Origin: Nostocoides sp. Soil756
GTDB lineage: Bacteria > Actinomycetota > Actinomycetes > Actinomycetales > Dermatophilaceae
Direction: 5' to 3'
Assembly: GCF_001428065.1 (NCBI RefSeq)
Contig: NZ_LMSE01000006.1
Span: forward strand, 62,437-126,436
Length of the DNA: 64,000 bases
The position numbers and the translations under genes were made by a program. Within the stretch, counting starts at the first letter, position 1. Each line of letters opens with the position of its first letter. Positions 59,017 through 64,000 of this stretch are shown here, piece by piece. The notes under the pieces were generated by a model, which did no database searches, was not told the DNA's origin, and saw only the letters and a list, made by a program, of their open reading frames with translations.

Positions 59017-59817
59017 TCAGCGGCGGCGCCAGCCGTCGCGCGCGGGCGGCTCGGGCGACGGTTGCGCGTCGTCGACGCCGAAGGGCCGCGCCCCGGGCAC
59101 CTTGCGGGCGACGTCGGCCCAGGGCAGCACCCCGGTGGGCAGCGCGGCGGAGGCCGTGGCCCGGCGCAGCGAGTAGAGGTCGAGCGGCCCGCGGGTCGCC
59201 ACCAGCACGAGGTTGCCGAACCGGCGACCCTTGAGCACCTCGTGCAGAGCCACGAACGCCGTCGGTCCCACCGCCTCGACCGCCCCGGCGGCCACCCGCG
59301 CGGCGTAGCGCATCCCGGGCTCGTCGGGGACGTTCGCCAGGAAGAGCCCGCCGGGGACCAGCACCCGCGCCACCTCCCCCAGCCACTGCCGGTGCGTCAG
59401 CCCCGCGGGCACCCGGCCGCCGTCGAAGGCGTCGAGGACGAGGAGGTCGGCGCTGGCGTCGGCCAGGGCGGCGACGCCCTCCTCACCGGTGACCGGCCGC
59501 ACCCGGATGCGGTGCCCGCGCGGTAGCGGCAGCTCGCGCCGCACGGCCTCGGTCAGGGCCGCGGCCGGCTCGAGGACGATCTGGGGCGAGCCCGGGCGGG
59601 TGTGCTCCAGCCAGCGGGCGAGCGTCAGACCGCCCCCACCGACGTGCGTGGTACGCAGCCGACCAGCCGGGGCCAGCGCCTCGACCGCCAGCGCCAGGTG
59701 CTGCACGTACTCGAAGGCCAGCACGGTGGGGTCGTCGGGGTCGACGGCCGACTGCGGGAGCTCGTCGAGGACGGTGGTGACGAGGCGGCCCTCGCGCTCG
59801 AACCGGGGTTCCTGCAC
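59017..59817 (-). CDS. spermidine synthase-like methyltransferase-fold protein
   Basis: 266-aa Rossmann-fold protein of the spermidine synthase-like group common in Actinobacteria. QHLALAVEALAPAGRLRTTHVGGGGLTLARWLEHTRP (decarboxy-AdoMet-type GGG motif), PQIVLEPAAAL and ADLLVLDAFDGGRVP (Asp-containing strand), then LVPGGLFLANVPD. The polyamine-specific acid residues cannot be checked with certainty, so aminopropyl transfer versus methylation is open. GTG start with TAGGCT 6 nt upstream. Divergent from the SCP2-like gene. Confidence 0.75.
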   Translation of the reverse strand: MQEPRFEREGRLVTTVLDELPQSAVDPDDPTVLAFEYVQHLALAVEALAPAGRLRTTHVGGGGLTLARWLEHTRPGSPQIVLEPAAALTEAVRRELPLPRGHRIRVRPVTGEEGVAALADASADLLVLDAFDGGRVPAGLTHRQWLGEVARVLVPGGLFLANVPDEPGMRYAARVAAGAVEAVGPTAFVALHEVLKGRRFGNLVLVATRGPLDLYSLRRATASAALPTGVLPWADVARKVPGARPFGVDDAQPSPEPPARDGWRRR

Positions 59818-59823
59818 GCCGGA

Positions 59824-59829
59824 AGCCTA
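59824..59829 (-). promoter_or_regulatory. candidate leaderless -10 (TAGGCT) of the spermidine synthase-like gene
   Basis: Reverse-strand TAGGCT with 6 nt to GTG 59817. Confidence 0.5.
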
Positions 59830-59862
59830 CGGCGGCCCCGGCCGGCCGTCGGCCCCCGCCGG

Positions 59863-59868
59863 TAGCGT
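59863..59868 (+). promoter_or_regulatory. candidate leaderless -10 (TAGCGT) of the SCP2-like gene
   Basis: TAGCGT lies 7 nt before ATG 59876. Confidence 0.5.
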
Positions 59869-59875
59869 GGGCACC

Positions 59876-60250
59876 ATGCCTCCTCGCCGCCGTACCGACC
59901 CCGGCGCCGGCCGGGCCGCCCTGCGGAGCTGGCACGCCGACCCCGTGGGCGCCGACCGGGCCATCCGGGCCACCGCCGTGCGGCACACCCTCGAGGAGCT
60001 CGCCGCTCGCGCCCCCGGGAACAGCGTCGAGGTGCGGGTCCCCCCCTTCGGCGTCGTCCAGTGCGTCGAGGGACCGCGACACACCCGCGGCACCCCGCCC
60101 AACGTCGTCGAGACCGATGCCGAGACCTGGCTGCGCCTGGCCACCGGCGACCTCGGGTGGGCCCAGGCGCTGCGTGAGGGCATCCTGCGGGTCAGTGGCA
60201 CTCGCGCCGACCTCTCGGGGCTGCTGCCGCTGACGGGAGAGCCCGCGTGA
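59876..60250 (+). CDS. sterol carrier (SCP2-like) family protein
   Basis: 124-aa protein of the actinobacterial sterol-carrier-like family: RAIRATAVRHTLEELAARAPGNSVEVRVPPFGVVQCVEG, then PPNVVETDAETWLRLATGDLGWAQALREGILRVSGTRADLSGLLPL. The DAETWLRLATG segment is the SCP2 signature. Probably binds a lipid or small molecule rather than acting as an enzyme. GTGA overlap with the downstream LLM gene, so coupled. Confidence 0.75.
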   Translation: MPPRRRTDPGAGRAALRSWHADPVGADRAIRATAVRHTLEELAARAPGNSVEVRVPPFGVVQCVEGPRHTRGTPPNVVETDAETWLRLATGDLGWAQALREGILRVSGTRADLSGLLPLTGEPA

Positions 60251-61110
60251 GCGGGACCCTGCGGCACGGCGTCGTCCTGCTCACCGACGAGCCCTGGCGC
60301 GAGAGCGCCCCGCGCTGGCGCGCGGTCGAGGAGCTCGGCTTCGACCACGCCTGGACCTACGACCACCTGGTGTGGGGAGGGCTGCCGGACAGCCCGTGGC
60401 GGAGCGCGATGCCCACCCTGGCGGCCGCCGCGGGCGTGACCGAGCGGATCGGCGTCGGCACTTTCGTGTCGTCACCCAACCAGAACCACCCCTACACCTA
60501 CGCGCGCGACGTCATCACCCTCGACGACCTCACCGGCGGCCGGTTCCTGTGTGGCGTCGGCACCGGCGGCGACCTCGACGCGCGGCTGCTCGGCCAGGAC
60601 CTGACGCTGCGCCGACGGGTCGACCGCTTCCACGAGTTCGTCCCGCTGCTCGACCGGCTGCTGCGCGAGGACCACGTCTGGCACGACGGCGAGTGGTACC
60701 GGACCGACGGCGCCCGGACCCTCCCCGGCCCGGTACGCCACCGCGTCCCGCTGCTGATCGCCGCCAACGGGCCGCGCTCGCTGGCGCTGGCGGCCACCGT
60801 CGGTGATGGTTGGGTCACCTACGGCGGGCGCGGAGAGACCCTCGACGCCTGGTTCGAACACGTGGCCGCCCTGGTCGAGCGCTTCGACGGCCTGGTCGCC
60901 GAGCAGGGTCGCACCGGCGTGTCCCGCTACCTGTCGCTCGACTCCTCCCCGCGGTTCTCGCTCGAGTCGGCCGGCCTCTACGCCGAGATGACGGGGCGGG
61001 CGGCCGAGCTCGGCTTCACCGACGTCGTCTGCCACTGGCCGCGCGCCGAGGGCCCGTACGCGGGCGACCCCGCCGTCCTCGAACAGGTGGCGGGTTCGCT
61101 CGGGCGCTGA
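60247..61110 (+). CDS. LLM class flavin-dependent oxidoreductase
   Basis: 287-aa luciferase-like oxidoreductase: RAVEELGFDHAWTYDHLVWGGLPDSPWRSAMPTLAAAAGVTERIGVGTFVSSPNQNHPYTYARDVITLDDLTGGRFLCGVGTGGDLDARLL is typical of F420-type LLM enzymes. Third LLM-family gene of the window and not closely similar to the others. GTG start overlaps the SCP2-like stop (GTGA). Convergent with rskA. Confidence 0.88.
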   Translation: MSGTLRHGVVLLTDEPWRESAPRWRAVEELGFDHAWTYDHLVWGGLPDSPWRSAMPTLAAAAGVTERIGVGTFVSSPNQNHPYTYARDVITLDDLTGGRFLCGVGTGGDLDARLLGQDLTLRRRVDRFHEFVPLLDRLLREDHVWHDGEWYRTDGARTLPGPVRHRVPLLIAANGPRSLALAATVGDGWVTYGGRGETLDAWFEHVAALVERFDGLVAEQGRTGVSRYLSLDSSPRFSLESAGLYAEMTGRAAELGFTDVVCHWPRAEGPYAGDPAVLEQVAGSLGR

Positions 61111-61130: not shown

Positions 61131-61925
61131 TCAGGCGACGGCCATGACCATGATCGGCTGCCCGGTCGGTGCGGCCGAGCCCCCGGTGGGCTCGACGGTG
61201 ACTCCGACCGCGGCAGCGCCGGTGAGCCCGCCCGCGAGGACCGCCTCGGCCCGTCCGTCCGGGGACGGGGTGAGGAAGCCGGCCGAGCGCGCGACCTCGT
61301 CGGACCCCATGTACCAGAGCTGGTAGGTGTGGCCGTCCGGGGCCGGCGGCATCCCGGTCACGGTGAGGGCCGAGCGGTTCAGCTCGCGGCTGTAGGCCAG
61401 GGTGGCGGTGACGGCGCCCTTGTGGCTGGTGACGGTGGCGGCGTCCGGGGCCTGGATGACCCGCTGCAACGCCGAGAGGGTCGGCTGGTCCGCGGACCAG
61501 GGACTCCACGCCGCGCCCCCGACGGCCAGCACCGCGGCGGCGGCGGCCGCTGCGATCCAGGTCGTGGTGCGGCGGAACAGCGGGATGACGGTGGCACCGG
61601 CGCGGGCGACCCCGGCCTCGCCGCCCATCGGCGTGGTGGGCCCGACGATGGTGGGCTCGTCGTCAGCGTCCTCGGCGGCGTCGTCGGCCGTGAGCGGGGG
61701 CAACGGACGGACCTGCGAGATGCCGGCCAGGACCGCGGTGCGCAGGGAGGCGGGCGGACCGGCCTCGGCCAGGACCGCCAGGCTGTGGGCGGTCGCCGAC
61801 AGCTCGGTGACCTCGGACCGGCAGGCCTCGCACTCGGCCAGGTGTGACTCGAACGCCGAACGCTCGTCGCGGTCGAGGGCGTCGACCGAGTACGCACCGC
61901 TGAGATGGTGCAGATCGGGGCTCAT
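61131..61925 (-). CDS. rskA: anti-sigma-K factor RskA
   Basis: 264-aa membrane anti-sigma factor. The cytoplasmic zinc-type ASD starts LHHLSGAYSVDALDRDERSAFESHLAECEACRSEV (H28, C32, C35, HxxxCxxC). One transmembrane helix is TTTWIAAAAAAAVLAVGGAAW. The extracytoplasmic RskA domain ends with LNRSALTVTGMPPAPDGHTYQLWYMG and GVTVEPTGGSAAPTGQPIMVMAVA. It releases SigK after regulated proteolysis (family knowledge). Start overlaps the sigK stop (4 nt), on the same strand. Confidence 0.92.
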   Translation of the reverse strand: MSPDLHHLSGAYSVDALDRDERSAFESHLAECEACRSEVTELSATAHSLAVLAEAGPPASLRTAVLAGISQVRPLPPLTADDAAEDADDEPTIVGPTTPMGGEAGVARAGATVIPLFRRTTTWIAAAAAAAVLAVGGAAWSPWSADQPTLSALQRVIQAPDAATVTSHKGAVTATLAYSRELNRSALTVTGMPPAPDGHTYQLWYMGSDEVARSAGFLTPSPDGRAEAVLAGGLTGAAAVGVTVEPTGGSAAPTGQPIMVMAVA

Positions 61926-62536
61926 GCCGGTACTCCCAACGTGTCCCGGAGACGGATGAGACCGTCCCGGATTCTGGTTTTCGCTGTTCCGAGGGGCAGA
62001 CCGAGGAGCTTGGCGACCTCGGTGTGCGTGTAGCCACCGAGATAGGCGAGCTCGACGGCGCTGCGTTGCGCCTCGGTGAGGGTGCTCAGGGCCTTGCGGA
62101 CCCGTTGCGCCTCGAGTGAGGCCTCGGCCGCCTCCGCGGTCTCGTCGAAGGCGACCGCCTGCGCCGAGGTGGCGTGGGCGTCGTCCCGACGACGCGAGGA
62201 CTCGCTCGACCTGACCCGGTCGACGGCCGCCCGGTGGGCGATCGTCATCAGCCACGACAGTGCGCTGCCCTTCTGGGCGTCGAACCGGGCGCTGGTCCGC
62301 CACACGTCGAGGTACACCTCCTGGGTGACCTCTTCCGACATGGCGTGGTCGCGCACGACCCTCAGCACCAGCCCGAAGACCCGGCGTGAGGTGGCGTCGT
62401 ACAGGCGGGCGAACGACTCCTCGTCGCCCCGGGCCGACCGGCGGAGCAGCTCCGCCAGGTCGGGTGAGGAGGCAGCCGCCCCCCCGGAGTCCGAGGTGGT
62501 CGGTACCGGGGAGGCGGCTGTCATGAGGTACATCAT
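61922..62536 (-). CDS. sigK: ECF sigma factor SigK
   Basis: 204-aa ECF sigma. Sigma2: LLRRSARGDEESFARLYDATSRRVFGLVLRVVRDHAMSEEVTQEVYLDVWRTSARFDAQKGSALSWLMTIAHRAAVDRVRSSES. Sigma4: ALSTLTEAQRSAVELAYLGGYTHTEVAKLLGLPLGTAKTRIRDGLIRLRDTLG. The start is one of three clustered ATG codons (62536, 62533, 62524); none has a good SD. It lies 9 nt after the fasciclin lipoprotein stop and overlaps rskA, so it is transcribed with the lipoprotein gene. Confidence 0.92.
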   Translation of the reverse strand: MMYLMTAASPVPTTSDSGGAAASSPDLAELLRRSARGDEESFARLYDATSRRVFGLVLRVVRDHAMSEEVTQEVYLDVWRTSARFDAQKGSALSWLMTIAHRAAVDRVRSSESSRRRDDAHATSAQAVAFDETAEAAEASLEAQRVRKALSTLTEAQRSAVELAYLGGYTHTEVAKLLGLPLGTAKTRIRDGLIRLRDTLGVPA

Positions 62537-62545
62537 CGCTGATGG

Positions 62546-63187
62546 TCAGCTCGCGGGGACGAGAACCTTGTCGATGATGTAGACCGTGGCGTTCGCGGTC
62601 TGCACGTTGCCGCAGACGATCTTCGCGTCACCGGGGGTGACGGTGAAGTCCTCGCCCGAGCCGGTGACGGTGATGGTCTTGCCCGCCAGCGTCTTGTGGT
62701 CGCCGGCGAGCTCGTCGGGGCTGATGCGACCCTCGACGACGTGGTTCGTCAGAACCGTCGTGAGGAGGCCCTTGGGGTCAGCCAGGGCCGCGTCGAGGGT
62801 GGCCTTCGGGAGCGCCGCGAAGGCGTCGTTGGTCGGCGCGAAGACGGTGATGTCCTTGGCGGAGTTCAGCGTGTCGGCCAGGCCGGCCTTGGTGACCGCG
62901 GTGACCAGGGTGGACAGGACCGGGTTGTTGCTGGCGGCGGTGGCCACCGGGTCCTTGGCCATGCCGTCGAACGAGCCGGCGCCGTCGGCGGGAACCGCGG
63001 CGCAGCCAGCGCCGAACGGCATGTCGGTGGTGGCGGCGCTCATGGTCTCCGACGGGGTCGCGGCCGGCGAGCTGGAGGTGGCGGTGGACGAGCTGGTACC
63101 GGTGCTGCCTTCGTCCGAACCGCACGCAGCGAGGGTCAGGGGAAGGGCGAGCGCCAGGGCGGCGACCGTGAGTCGGGTGGTACGCAT
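62546..63187 (-). CDS. secreted fasciclin-domain lipoprotein (MPT83/MPT70-like)
   Basis: 213-aa exported lipoprotein: signal ALALPLTLAACG with lipidated Cys, a Ser/Thr linker, then a single FAS1 domain: DPVATAASNNPVLSTLVTAVTKAGLADTLNSAKDITVFAPTNDAFAALP (H1 motif) and VVEGRISPDELAGDHKTLAGKTITVTG, ending ATVYIIDKVLVPAS (H2). FAS1 lipoproteins MPT83/MPT70 are the prime SigK targets in mycobacteria, and this gene sits directly before sigK. A candidate SigK promoter is seen 47 nt upstream. Start ATG has AAGGAG. Confidence 0.92.
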   Translation of the reverse strand: MRTTRLTVAALALALPLTLAACGSDEGSTGTSSSTATSSSPAATPSETMSAATTDMPFGAGCAAVPADGAGSFDGMAKDPVATAASNNPVLSTLVTAVTKAGLADTLNSAKDITVFAPTNDAFAALPKATLDAALADPKGLLTTVLTNHVVEGRISPDELAGDHKTLAGKTITVTGSGEDFTVTPGDAKIVCGNVQTANATVYIIDKVLVPAS

Positions 63188-63233
63188 CGGAGGTGCTCCT
63201 TGCGGATCGGGTGGCTTGCTTCGTACGGATGTA

Positions 63234-63261
63234 GTTCGGAGCCCCGGGTGGCGCGGATTGG
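63234..63261 (-). promoter_or_regulatory. candidate SigK promoter of the fasciclin-sigK-rskA operon
   Basis: On the reverse strand CCAATC (63261-63256), 16 nt, CCGAAC (63239-63234). The mycobacterial SigK consensus is CCATCC-N16/17-CCGAAT, so both boxes are close and the spacing exact. The -10 lies 47 nt before ATG 63187. Confidence 0.55.
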
Positions 63262-63322
63262 CTGGACCGGAACTTTTTCCGGCGCCGTTCGGGGATGGGT
63301 CGCGGTGGCACCGTCCCCGCGC

Positions 63323-63365
63323 GACGACGACGGCCGGCCCCTCGCGGGTGCCGGCCGTCGTCGTC
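63323..63365 (-). terminator. strong hairpin terminator after the molybdopterin oxidoreductase gene
   Basis: GACGACGACGGCCGGC (63323-63338) pairs perfectly over 16 bp with 63350-63365, 11-nt loop. It starts 15 nt after the stop of the reverse-strand oxidoreductase gene; no U-run. A smaller dyad CCGGAA/TTCCGG lies at 63268-63281. Confidence 0.7.
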
Positions 63366-63380
63366 CTCAGGGAGGGGTGC

Positions 63381-64000
63381 TCACTCGACGGTCATGATGA
63401 CCGTGTGCCAGCCGGTGGCGCCCTTCGGGAACGGGGTCTGCCGCTGGTGGGTCTGGGTCTTCCCGGTCGCGTCGGTCGCTCGCACCACCAGGGTGTGGCG
63501 GCCGGGCAGGGCGTCCCACGGCAGGTACCACTGGCGCCAGTAGTCGATGCCGGCCTCCGGGCCGAGCTTGGCCTCGGTCCAGGTGCCGCCGTCGACCTGC
63601 ACCTCGACCTTGCGGATGCCGCGCTCCTGGGCCCAGGCCACGCCGCCGATCACGGTCCGGCCACTCGAGATGGTGCTCAGCGGGCGCGGGGTGTCGATAC
63701 GGGACTCGGTGTAGATGGGTGCGTCGGTGGCCCAGCCGCGCTCGGTCCAGTACGCGACGTCCTTGGCGTAGGTGGTGGCCGTGAGCTTCGTCAGCCACTT
63801 CGTGGACCCGACGAACCCGTAGAGGCCAGGGGTGACGAGGCGGACGGGGAAGCCGTGCTCGACGGGGAGCGGCTTGCCGTTCATCCCCACCGCGACGAGG
63901 GCGTCGCGGTCGTCGGTCATCGCCTGGAGCGGGGTGGAGATCGTCATCCCGTCGGTCGAGGTGCTGAGGATCTGGTCGACCCCGCTCTGCACCCCGGCCC
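63381..64000 (-). CDS. molybdopterin-dependent oxidoreductase, sulfite oxidase-like, 5' part beyond window
   Basis: C-terminal 206 codons of a larger enzyme; the frame is open at the window edge so the true start lies outside. SGVDQILSTSTDGMTISTPLQAMTDDRDALVAVGMNGKPLPVEHGFPVRLVTPGLYGFVGSTKWLTKLT is the end of the oxidoreductase molybdopterin-binding domain. GVAWAQERGIRKVEVQVDGGTWTEAKLGPEAGIDYWRQWYLPWDALPGRHTLVVRATDATG is the Mo-co dimerisation domain of sulfite oxidase/YedY-type enzymes. It lies upstream of the fasciclin-sigK operon, a recurring arrangement for SigK loci. Confidence 0.88.
   Translation of the reverse strand, partial: AGVQSGVDQILSTSTDGMTISTPLQAMTDDRDALVAVGMNGKPLPVEHGFPVRLVTPGLYGFVGSTKWLTKLTATTYAKDVAYWTERGWATDAPIYTESRIDTPRPLSTISSGRTVIGGVAWAQERGIRKVEVQVDGGTWTEAKLGPEAGIDYWRQWYLPWDALPGRHTLVVRATDATGKTQTHQRQTPFPKGATGWHTVIMTVE

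What the first reader, a model, noticed from the sequence alone, without database searches (positions are those of the whole stretch)
61131..64000. SigK locus with fasciclin lipoprotein, molybdopterin oxidoreductase and a SigK-like promoter
The order oxidoreductase, FAS1 lipoprotein, sigK, rskA mirrors the mycobacterial SigK regulon (MPT70/MPT83). CCAATC-N16-CCGAAC before the lipoprotein gene resembles the SigK consensus CCATCC-N16/17-CCGAAT. This puts sigK in its own regulon and suggests an ancient redox-linked surface system beyond mycobacteria.
Basis: partly seen in the sequence, partly recalled or inferred. Interest (0 to 1): 0.5.

Follow-up and report, generated by a model that had tools for sequence, protein, structure and literature searches.

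The report
SigK stress operon with wider regulon
A soil-type actinobacterium carries the gene switch (SigK/RskA) known from tuberculosis bacteria, and the promoter it seems to use recurs before a shared set of surface, lipid-modifying and peroxide-removing genes, which suggests that this switch, whose trigger is unknown, may answer to light or lipid-oxidation damage.

Summary
On the minus strand lie the end of a molybdopterin oxidoreductase (MoOR), an MPT70-like FAS1 lipoprotein, sigK and rskA. The proposed promoter is real; its conserved register is CAATCC-N15-CCGAAC. In 80 related loci the motif has 45 hits in that register, against at most 3 at any other spacer; 43 of 45 lie within 250 bases upstream of MoOR, FAS1 or sigK. 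44 of the 80 loci have no exact match.

In this genome the motif also precedes a UfaD-like/DUF1365/CMAS lipid operon, CMAS-DUF1295, a CHRD surface protein with its sortase, and a glutathione peroxidase. In tuberculosis bacteria the FAS1 genes lie away from sigK and the lipid cluster beside it; here linkage is swapped. The set resembles the singlet-oxygen regulon of Rhodobacter, so a photooxidative or lipid-peroxide signal is my leading, unproven guess. SigK here lacks the two cysteines of the known redox switch, so 'redox-linked' is not supported at that level. SigK dependence is inferred from sequence only; the central earlier paper (Veyrier 2008) could not be read.

The parts
63381..64000 (-). 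3' part of a 526-aa molybdopterin oxidoreductase (MoOR, sulfite-oxidase type, hydrophobic N-terminal part); the gene goes on outside the window (L002:3381-4961 -, G000:C6:125817-127397) and has CCATCC-N16-CCGAAC 7 bases before its ATG
   Evidence: PF00174 71.2 bits for the part, 139.7 bits for the full protein; gene and promoter read in sequence
63323..63365 (-). hairpin between the MoOR stop and the FAS1 promoter (two 16-base arms, 63323-63338 and 63350-63365); probable transcription terminator, so the two genes are likely separate units (inference)
   Evidence: 76-base fold -58.1 kcal/mol, z -6.04, 0 of 200 shuffles as good; arms; inverted repeat
63234..63260 (-). SigK-type promoter CAATCC-N15-CCGAAC of the FAS1-sigK-rskA operon
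62546..63187 (-). FAS1 (fasciclin) lipoprotein, MPT70/MPT83 relative; lipobox Cys22 and two further cysteines (62, 192)
   Evidence: PF02469 103.9 bits; best solved structure MPT70 1nyo, E 1.2e-36; cysteines
61922..62536 (-). sigK, ECF sigma factor with no cysteine
   Evidence: NF007228 262.5 bits, cut-off 226; best solved structure SigK 4nqw, E 4.7e-49; no cysteine
61131..61925 (-). rskA, anti-sigma factor with an N-terminal HxxxCxxC motif
   Evidence: PF10099 89.9 bits, zf-HC2 24.5 bits; NF052375 172.7 bits; motif

Best explanation
The window holds an actinobacterial SigK-RskA operon headed by an MPT70-type FAS1 lipoprotein. When RskA lets SigK go, SigK-RNA polymerase starts at promoters of the form C[A/C]ATCC-N15/16-CCGAA[C/T]. 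It thereby transcribes its own operon (positive feedback) and a small envelope and lipid-protection regulon: MoOR as a leaderless transcript, a furan/branched-lipid operon (UfaD-like flavoprotein, DUF1365, CMAS methyltransferase, NmrA-type protein), CMAS-DUF1295, a CHRD surface protein with a class F sortase, and a glutathione peroxidase. Shown from sequence: genes, families, motif, positions, recurrence across genera. Inferred: that SigK is the sigma factor using the motif, the release step, and the role in protecting envelope lipids and proteins from oxidation.
For: Motif peak in one register only (repeated with C[AC]ATCC on 114 order-level loci: 45 at N15, 7 at N16, 4 in all at 17 other spacers; some of these loci overlap and share sites). 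43 of 45 hits within 250 bases upstream of MoOR, FAS1 or sigK. Motif within 1 kb upstream of sigK, on its strand, in 16 of 30 SigK loci. Own genome: 9 exact hits against 0 in the reversed control, 2.6 expected by base composition; six stand 5-63 bases before a plausible start. CHRD: motif ending 24-84 bases before the aligned match in 8 of 15 loci, and CHRD genes found in 25 of 63 SigK-bearing genomes but 0 of 36 without. MoOR in 51 of 63 against 10 of 36. Unlinked places carry the same promoter. Mycobacteriales: motif before the UfaD-like gene in 4 of 30 loci, two of them with sigK-rskA beside it.
Against: No expression data. 44 of 80 FAS1 loci, among them 14 of 29 with all four genes, show no exact motif. 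12 of 30 SigK loci have none within the stretch held, and 2 have it inside sigK. The UfaD-like gene carries the motif in only 5 of 36 loci (order and class level) and 4 of 30 in Mycobacteriales, so that link is confined to some lineages. The glutathione peroxidase link is seen in 2 of 30 loci, both of the window's family. Genomes without a strong SigK hit still average 2.6 motifs above control, against 4.0 with SigK, so background is not zero. 3 of the 9 own-genome hits look unconvincing. A MoOR-linked motif in 15 of 27 SigK-bearing against 0 of 3 other genomes is too few to separate.
Confidence: 0.8

Rival explanations
1. The motif is real but is read mainly by another ECF sigma factor of the genome; SigK is only a neighbour.
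For: The genome has 12 hits to the SigK model, so other ECF-type factors are present. Some genomes without a strong SigK hit have many motif copies (for example G021 with 10 and no control hits).
Against: The motif stands before sigK or its operon in many loci. CHRD and MoOR genes co-occur with SigK.
Confidence: 0.1
2. Only the local MoOR and FAS1-sigK-rskA promoters are SigK targets; the distant lipid, CHRD and peroxidase sites are chance or lineage noise.
For: 2.6 matches are expected by chance in the genome. 31 of 36 and 26 of 30 UfaD-like loci lack the motif. Glutathione peroxidase in 2 of 30 loci.
Against: Same site before the same gene elsewhere: UfaD-like in four genomes of three genera of the order, CHRD in 8 of 15 loci, CHRD-sortase adjacent to FAS1-sigK-rskA-MoOR in two loci (L197, L198).
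Confidence: 0.12
3. SigK here answers to cytoplasmic thiol redox, as described for M. tuberculosis.
For: RskA keeps an HxxxCxxC motif that could sense thiol or zinc state.
Against: The SigK cysteine pair is missing (A149, T199; no cysteine at all). 24 of 66 SigK proteins lack both.
Confidence: 0.12

Closest known systems
SigK-RskA regulon of the M. tuberculosis complex (mpt70, mpt83, dipZ; ufaA1-sigK-rskA locus)
   Different: FAS1 is linked to sigK and the lipid cluster is not; MoOR, CHRD-sortase and glutathione peroxidase carry the promoter; SigK has no cysteines; RskA has HxxxCxxC, whereas PMC7406223 (passages) says M. [quoted passage not shown]
Singlet-oxygen RpoE-ChrR (ECF11) regulon of Rhodobacter sphaeroides
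   Same: Targets include a fasciclin protein (RSP_1409), CfaS/UfaM, UfaD-UfaO and a short-chain dehydrogenase; in R. capsulatus the rpoE locus has a glutathione peroxidase, and its RpoE is closer to SigK (34%) than to R. sphaeroides RpoE (24%) (PMC7074977, passages and Table 1; PMC7380195, passages)
   Different: Different sigma and anti-sigma family; no photolyase among the ten genes scanned (four around the lipid locus of this genome, six of a related genome); MoOR and CHRD-sortase do not appear in the passages seen for Rhodobacter
UfaM-UfaD-UfaO furan fatty acid pathway
   Same: One gene row with a flavin amine-oxidase-type protein, DUF1365 (the UfaO family) and a CMAS methyltransferase (PMC7380195, passages)
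   Different: Judged by family only, no direct comparison with the Rhodobacter proteins; product not tested; a second CMAS and DUF1295 are added
LitR/CarH-type light regulators beside ufaM clusters (Pseudomonas)
   Same: A MerR-B12 protein with Wx9EH lies between the two motif-bearing lipid operons and is divergent from the UfaD-like gene in two further genomes (PMC9758184, passages)
   Different: Scores 126 bits against a cut-off of 400 for CarH; no photolyase found beside it; one of the two further genomes (G015) has no strong SigK hit and no motif there

Membership tests
SigK (ECF18/19) sigma factor | Match to the curated SigK family model above its cut-off | tested here: met
   NF007228 262.5 bits, cut-off 226; best PDB sequence hit SigK 4nqw
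SigK (ECF18/19) sigma factor | Cysteine pair 133/183 (described as conserved in 94% of ECF18 and 56% of ECF19, PMC7509140; so typical, not obligatory) | tested here: not met
   Window residues A149 and T199; no cysteine in the protein
RskA anti-sigma factor | RskA C-terminal domain, encoded directly downstream of sigK | tested here: met
   PF10099 89.9 bits; overlap ATGA. Against PDB sequences the best hit is not an RskA entry (3hug_B, E 1e-4)
SigK regulon | SigK-type promoter before the operon that contains sigK | tested here: met
   CAATCC-N15-CCGAAC at 63260-63234
SigK regulon | MPT70/MPT83-type FAS1 target | tested here: met
   Best solved structure MPT70 1nyo, E 1.2e-36, with the promoter before it
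SigK regulon | dipZ between the FAS1 genes | not tested
   One FAS1 gene only in this genome at E <= 0.001; the genome was not searched for dipZ
SigK regulon | Transcription depends on SigK and is held back by RskA | not testable with these tools
   Needs expression data
Furan fatty acid (UfaM/UfaD/UfaO) pathway | SAM methyltransferase, NAD/FAD-binding desaturase-like protein and DUF1365 encoded together | tested here: met
   L094: PF01593, PF07103, PF02353 in one gene row
Furan fatty acid (UfaM/UfaD/UfaO) pathway | Makes furan fatty acids | not testable with these tools
   Needs fatty-acid analysis
Singlet-oxygen (ECF11 RpoE-ChrR) regulon | ECF11 sigma factor with a ChrR anti-sigma factor | tested here: not met
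   The sigma factor is SigK and the anti-sigma factor RskA; only the regulon content is alike

The most novel reading that the evidence does not exclude
Actinobacterial SigK-RskA is the counterpart of the proteobacterial singlet-oxygen switch: light-driven or lipid-peroxide damage in the envelope releases SigK, which makes furan/branched fatty acids, a peroxidase, a molybdenum repair enzyme and a FAS1 plus sortase-linked CHRD surface layer. The tuberculosis antigens MPT70/MPT83 would then be descendants of an environmental photooxidative-stress surface system, and the unknown signal of SigK would be oxidised lipid or singlet oxygen.
Probability: 0.4. Interest if true: 0.8.

Novelty: new variant of a known kind. 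Interest (0 to 1): 0.55.

Why it matters
The signal that activates SigK is described as still unknown (PMC7509140, passage). A regulon that recurs outside pathogens, with unlinked genes sharing one promoter, hints at what the switch was built for and offers harmless strains in which to find the signal. It predicts functions for genes of the tuberculosis sigK locus called unknown (flavoprotein and DUF1365 as a furan fatty acid pathway; that these are the genes there is partly recalled) and adds candidate members: a leaderless molybdenum enzyme and a CHRD-sortase pair.

Tried and rejected
Order identical to mycobacteria: rejected. Promoter register CCAATC-N16: corrected to CAATCC-N15 after aligning 45 sites. 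MoOR-FAS1 as one transcript in this genome: unlikely, because of a strong hairpin between them and a promoter after it. SigK-level thiol switch: rejected for this protein. Photolyase near the lipid locus: not found among ten selected genes (four from this genome, six from a related one; the stretch L325 fetched was not scanned). Motif count as a genome-wide marker of SigK: only a modest difference. Folds were not predicted, since the proteins are placed by sequence.

The first upstream survey kept 73 of 82 FAS1 frames (dropped: 2 with too little upstream DNA, 7 without a lipobox) and found 11 of 73 with the strict motif; it looked only before the FAS1 start that the script chose, and so missed promoters that lie before MoOR. 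One search replaced it with a scan of whole loci; its gene assignment of a few hits is rough (for example L007 and L015, in long open frames). One search printed no row for L185.

Papers were seen in passages, except for named sections of PMC7509140 (Introduction; one Results section). Veyrier 2008 (J Bacteriol 190:1891) was not held; the ECF classification papers that may already describe this context were not seen. So I make no claim of first description. Two searches looked for SigK with CHRD/sortase (2 papers listed) and SigK with singlet oxygen or light in actinobacteria (10 listed, 5 of them opened in passages); in what I saw, none states the proposal made here, though PMC7074977 notes the likeness of R. 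capsulatus RpoE to SigK and PMC9861118 reports light induction of FAS1 genes.
Full report
What is there. On the minus strand, in transcription order, the window end holds the 3' part of a molybdopterin oxidoreductase (MoOR), a FAS1 lipoprotein, sigK and rskA. The FAS1 protein's best solved relative is MPT70 (1nyo, E 1.2e-36); SigK's is the M. tuberculosis SigK chain 4nqw (E 4.7e-49). sigK and rskA overlap by ATGA. FAS1 and sigK are 9 bases apart (62537-62545), so FAS1-sigK-rskA is very probably one operon. The rest of MoOR lies just outside the window; the full protein has 526 aa, with one PF00174 domain at residues 254-400 and a hydrophobic N-terminal part (read by eye). A hairpin of two 16-base arms (63323-63338 and 63350-63365; 76-base fold -58.1 kcal/mol, z -6.04) lies between the MoOR stop and the FAS1 promoter.

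The promoter. Aligned on the -10 element, 45 sites of relatives read C-[A/C]-A-T-C-C, 15 bases, C-C-G-A-A-[C/T], with 1 or 2 exceptions at three of the positions. N16 also occurs, as before MoOR of this genome and in 7 of 56 counted matches at spacers 8-26 in order-level loci.

Is it chance? I fetched 80 loci with relatives of the FAS1 protein from named genomes (capped at 80 of 557 confirmed: Knoellia, Terrabacter, Actinoplanes, Streptomyces, Actinomadura, Nocardiopsis and others). Over 783 kb, CCA[AT][CT]C-Nx-CCGAA[CT] occurs 22 times at N15 and 23 times at N16 (CCAATC-N16 is the same register as CAATCC-N15), 0 to 3 times at each of 24 other spacers between 5 and 30, and 0 times at eight spacers of the reversed pattern. 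43 of these 45 lie within 250 bases upstream of MoOR (20), FAS1 (16) or sigK (7); the assignment of a few is rough because some open frames are long. 27 of 45 have ATG or GTG exactly 7 bases after the -10 element, mostly MoOR, so MoOR is probably leaderless; 21 of 45 show ATG or GTG at 5, often through GTGTG, and no other offset from 0 to 24 exceeds 4. Many of these loci are orthologous and from one genus, so they are not independent. Against: 36 of 80 loci have a hit and 44 have none; of the 29 loci with all four genes, 15 have one. The gene neighbourhood itself is wide: MoOR, FAS1, sigK and rskA all present in 29 of 80 loci, in several orders (7 loci with the window's order), MoOR and FAS1 alone in 23, FAS1 alone in 20; some loci are cut by contig ends.

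A wider regulon in the same genome. The exact pattern CMATCC-N15/16-CCGAAY has 9 hits in the 3.47-Mb genome and 0 in the reversed control; 2.6 are expected from base composition. Six stand before genes (bases to the first plausible start): MoOR (7); FAS1-sigK-rskA (46); a flavin amine-oxidase-type protein (60), followed on the same strand by DUF1365, CMAS, a Polyketide_cyc2 protein and an NmrA-type protein; a second CMAS (54, counted in the letters) with DUF1295; a CHRD-domain protein (63) with a class F sortase; and a glutathione peroxidase (5; 176.7 bits, below that model's cut-off of 270). The other three (upstream of folD, 171 bases before an ABC ATPase, and one in a long open frame) are not convincing. 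Between the two lipid operons lies a MerR-B12 protein with Wx9EH, nearest to CarH (126 bits, cut-off 400); that the motif marks light sensors is recalled, not from a call. A MerR-B12 gene is likewise divergent from the flavoprotein gene in two further genomes (L189, L193); the second of these, G015, has no strong SigK hit and no motif there.

Order-level tests, 99 genomes. Motif 264 against control 9 in 63 genomes with a strong SigK hit (E <= 1e-50); 122 against 28 in 36 without; mean excess 4.0 against 2.6, p 0.003. The cut at 1e-50 is mine; one of the 36 (G040) is incomplete and has a partial hit. By gene, in the loci that the searches laid out: within 1 kb upstream of sigK in 16 of 30 loci (2 more inside sigK, 12 none); before MoOR or within about 350 bases after it in 15 of 30; before CHRD in 8 of 15; before the flavoprotein in 4 of 9 (four genomes, three genera). 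In-frame starts follow 5-72 bases after the motif in 7 of the 8 CHRD loci (no row for L185) and 32-60 bases after it in the four flavoprotein loci. CHRD genes occur in 25 of 63 SigK genomes and 0 of 36 others (14 of 30 against 0 of 23 genera); MoOR in 51 of 63 against 10 of 36 (26 of 30 against 8 of 23 genera). Relatedness was not modelled beyond the genus count. In two loci (L197, L198) CHRD-sortase sits beside FAS1-sigK-rskA-MoOR with its own motif. Glutathione peroxidase: motif just before the gene in 2 of 30 loci, the window's genome and one other genus of its family.

The lipid cluster beyond the order. Motif near the start of the flavoprotein gene in 5 of 36 loci (order and class level) and in 4 of 30 loci from the order of Hoyosella (Mycobacteriales), always N15, 0 at 18 other spacers from 8 to 26; two of those four have sigK-rskA beside it. 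The Hoyosella genome itself has one 76 bases before the match. So SigK-type control of this cluster appears in some lineages and is not seen in most loci tested. The linkage is swapped relative to the tuberculosis bacteria, where the cluster is beside sigK and the FAS1 genes are elsewhere (PMC10540498, passages), and where sigK is autoregulated through the promoter of Rv0449c (PMC7509140, passage). That Rv0449c-Rv0446c are the flavoprotein, DUF1365, CMAS and DUF1295 genes is recalled, apart from UfaA1.

How it most likely works. Shown by sequence: genes, families, motif and recurrence. Inferred from known SigK-RskA systems: RskA in the membrane holds SigK; a signal outside or in the membrane frees it; SigK amplifies its own operon and turns on the set. 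PMC7509140 (Introduction read in full) describes regulated proteolysis of RskA and a SigK disulfide; the latter cannot operate here, as SigK has no cysteine. 42 of 66 SigK proteins have both cysteines and 24 neither; the window's RskA keeps HxxxCxxC.

What the signal may be. The target set resembles the singlet-oxygen regulon of R. sphaeroides: a fasciclin protein, CfaS/UfaM, UfaD and UfaO (DUF1365) and a dehydrogenase; R. capsulatus, whose RpoE is closer to SigK than to R. sphaeroides RpoE, has a glutathione peroxidase at that locus (PMC7074977, passages and Table 1; PMC7380195, passages; PMC6852236, passages). Light induces the FAS1 genes mpk83 and mpk70 in M. kansasii, 6- and 3-fold (PMC9861118, passages), though dipZ between them was not induced. 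UV lowered RskA abundance in a soil actinobacterium (PMC8965627, passage). LitR-type regulators and ufaM are light-induced in Pseudomonas (PMC9758184, passages). None of this tests SigK directly; I give the photooxidative or lipid-peroxide reading 0.4.

Novelty. SigK-RskA, its promoter and the MPT70 link are known. What I add from the calls is the spread of the promoter to MoOR (leaderless), CHRD-sortase, the flavoprotein/DUF1365/CMAS cluster outside mycobacteria and a peroxidase, the swapped linkage, and a testable proposal for the signal. I could not read Veyrier 2008 or the ECF group descriptions, so parts may be in print.

Noticed in passing
L094:6035-7174 (G000:C7): MerR-B12 protein with Wx9EH, CarH/LitR-like, between two operons with SigK-type promoters; divergent from the flavoprotein gene in two other genomes too.
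   Followed up: partly
L011:7105-7131: The same motif 7 bases before a start codon of a predicted Ser/Thr protein kinase (judged by eye) in Paractinoplanes ovalisporus, downstream of FAS1-MoOR.
   Followed up: no
L130 and L134, inside sigK: Motif within the sigK coding region of two related genomes (ending 186-204 bases into the match), perhaps an internal promoter for rskA.
   Followed up: no
   Followed up: no
window 59489-61110 (+): An SCP_3-domain protein and a luciferase-like monooxygenase run convergently towards rskA; no link to SigK seen.
   Followed up: no
G050:C6:125688-127183: MoOR in this related genome is matched in two pieces that overlap slightly, close to a sigK gene (C6:127932-128468), perhaps a frameshifted or decaying copy.
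   Followed up: no
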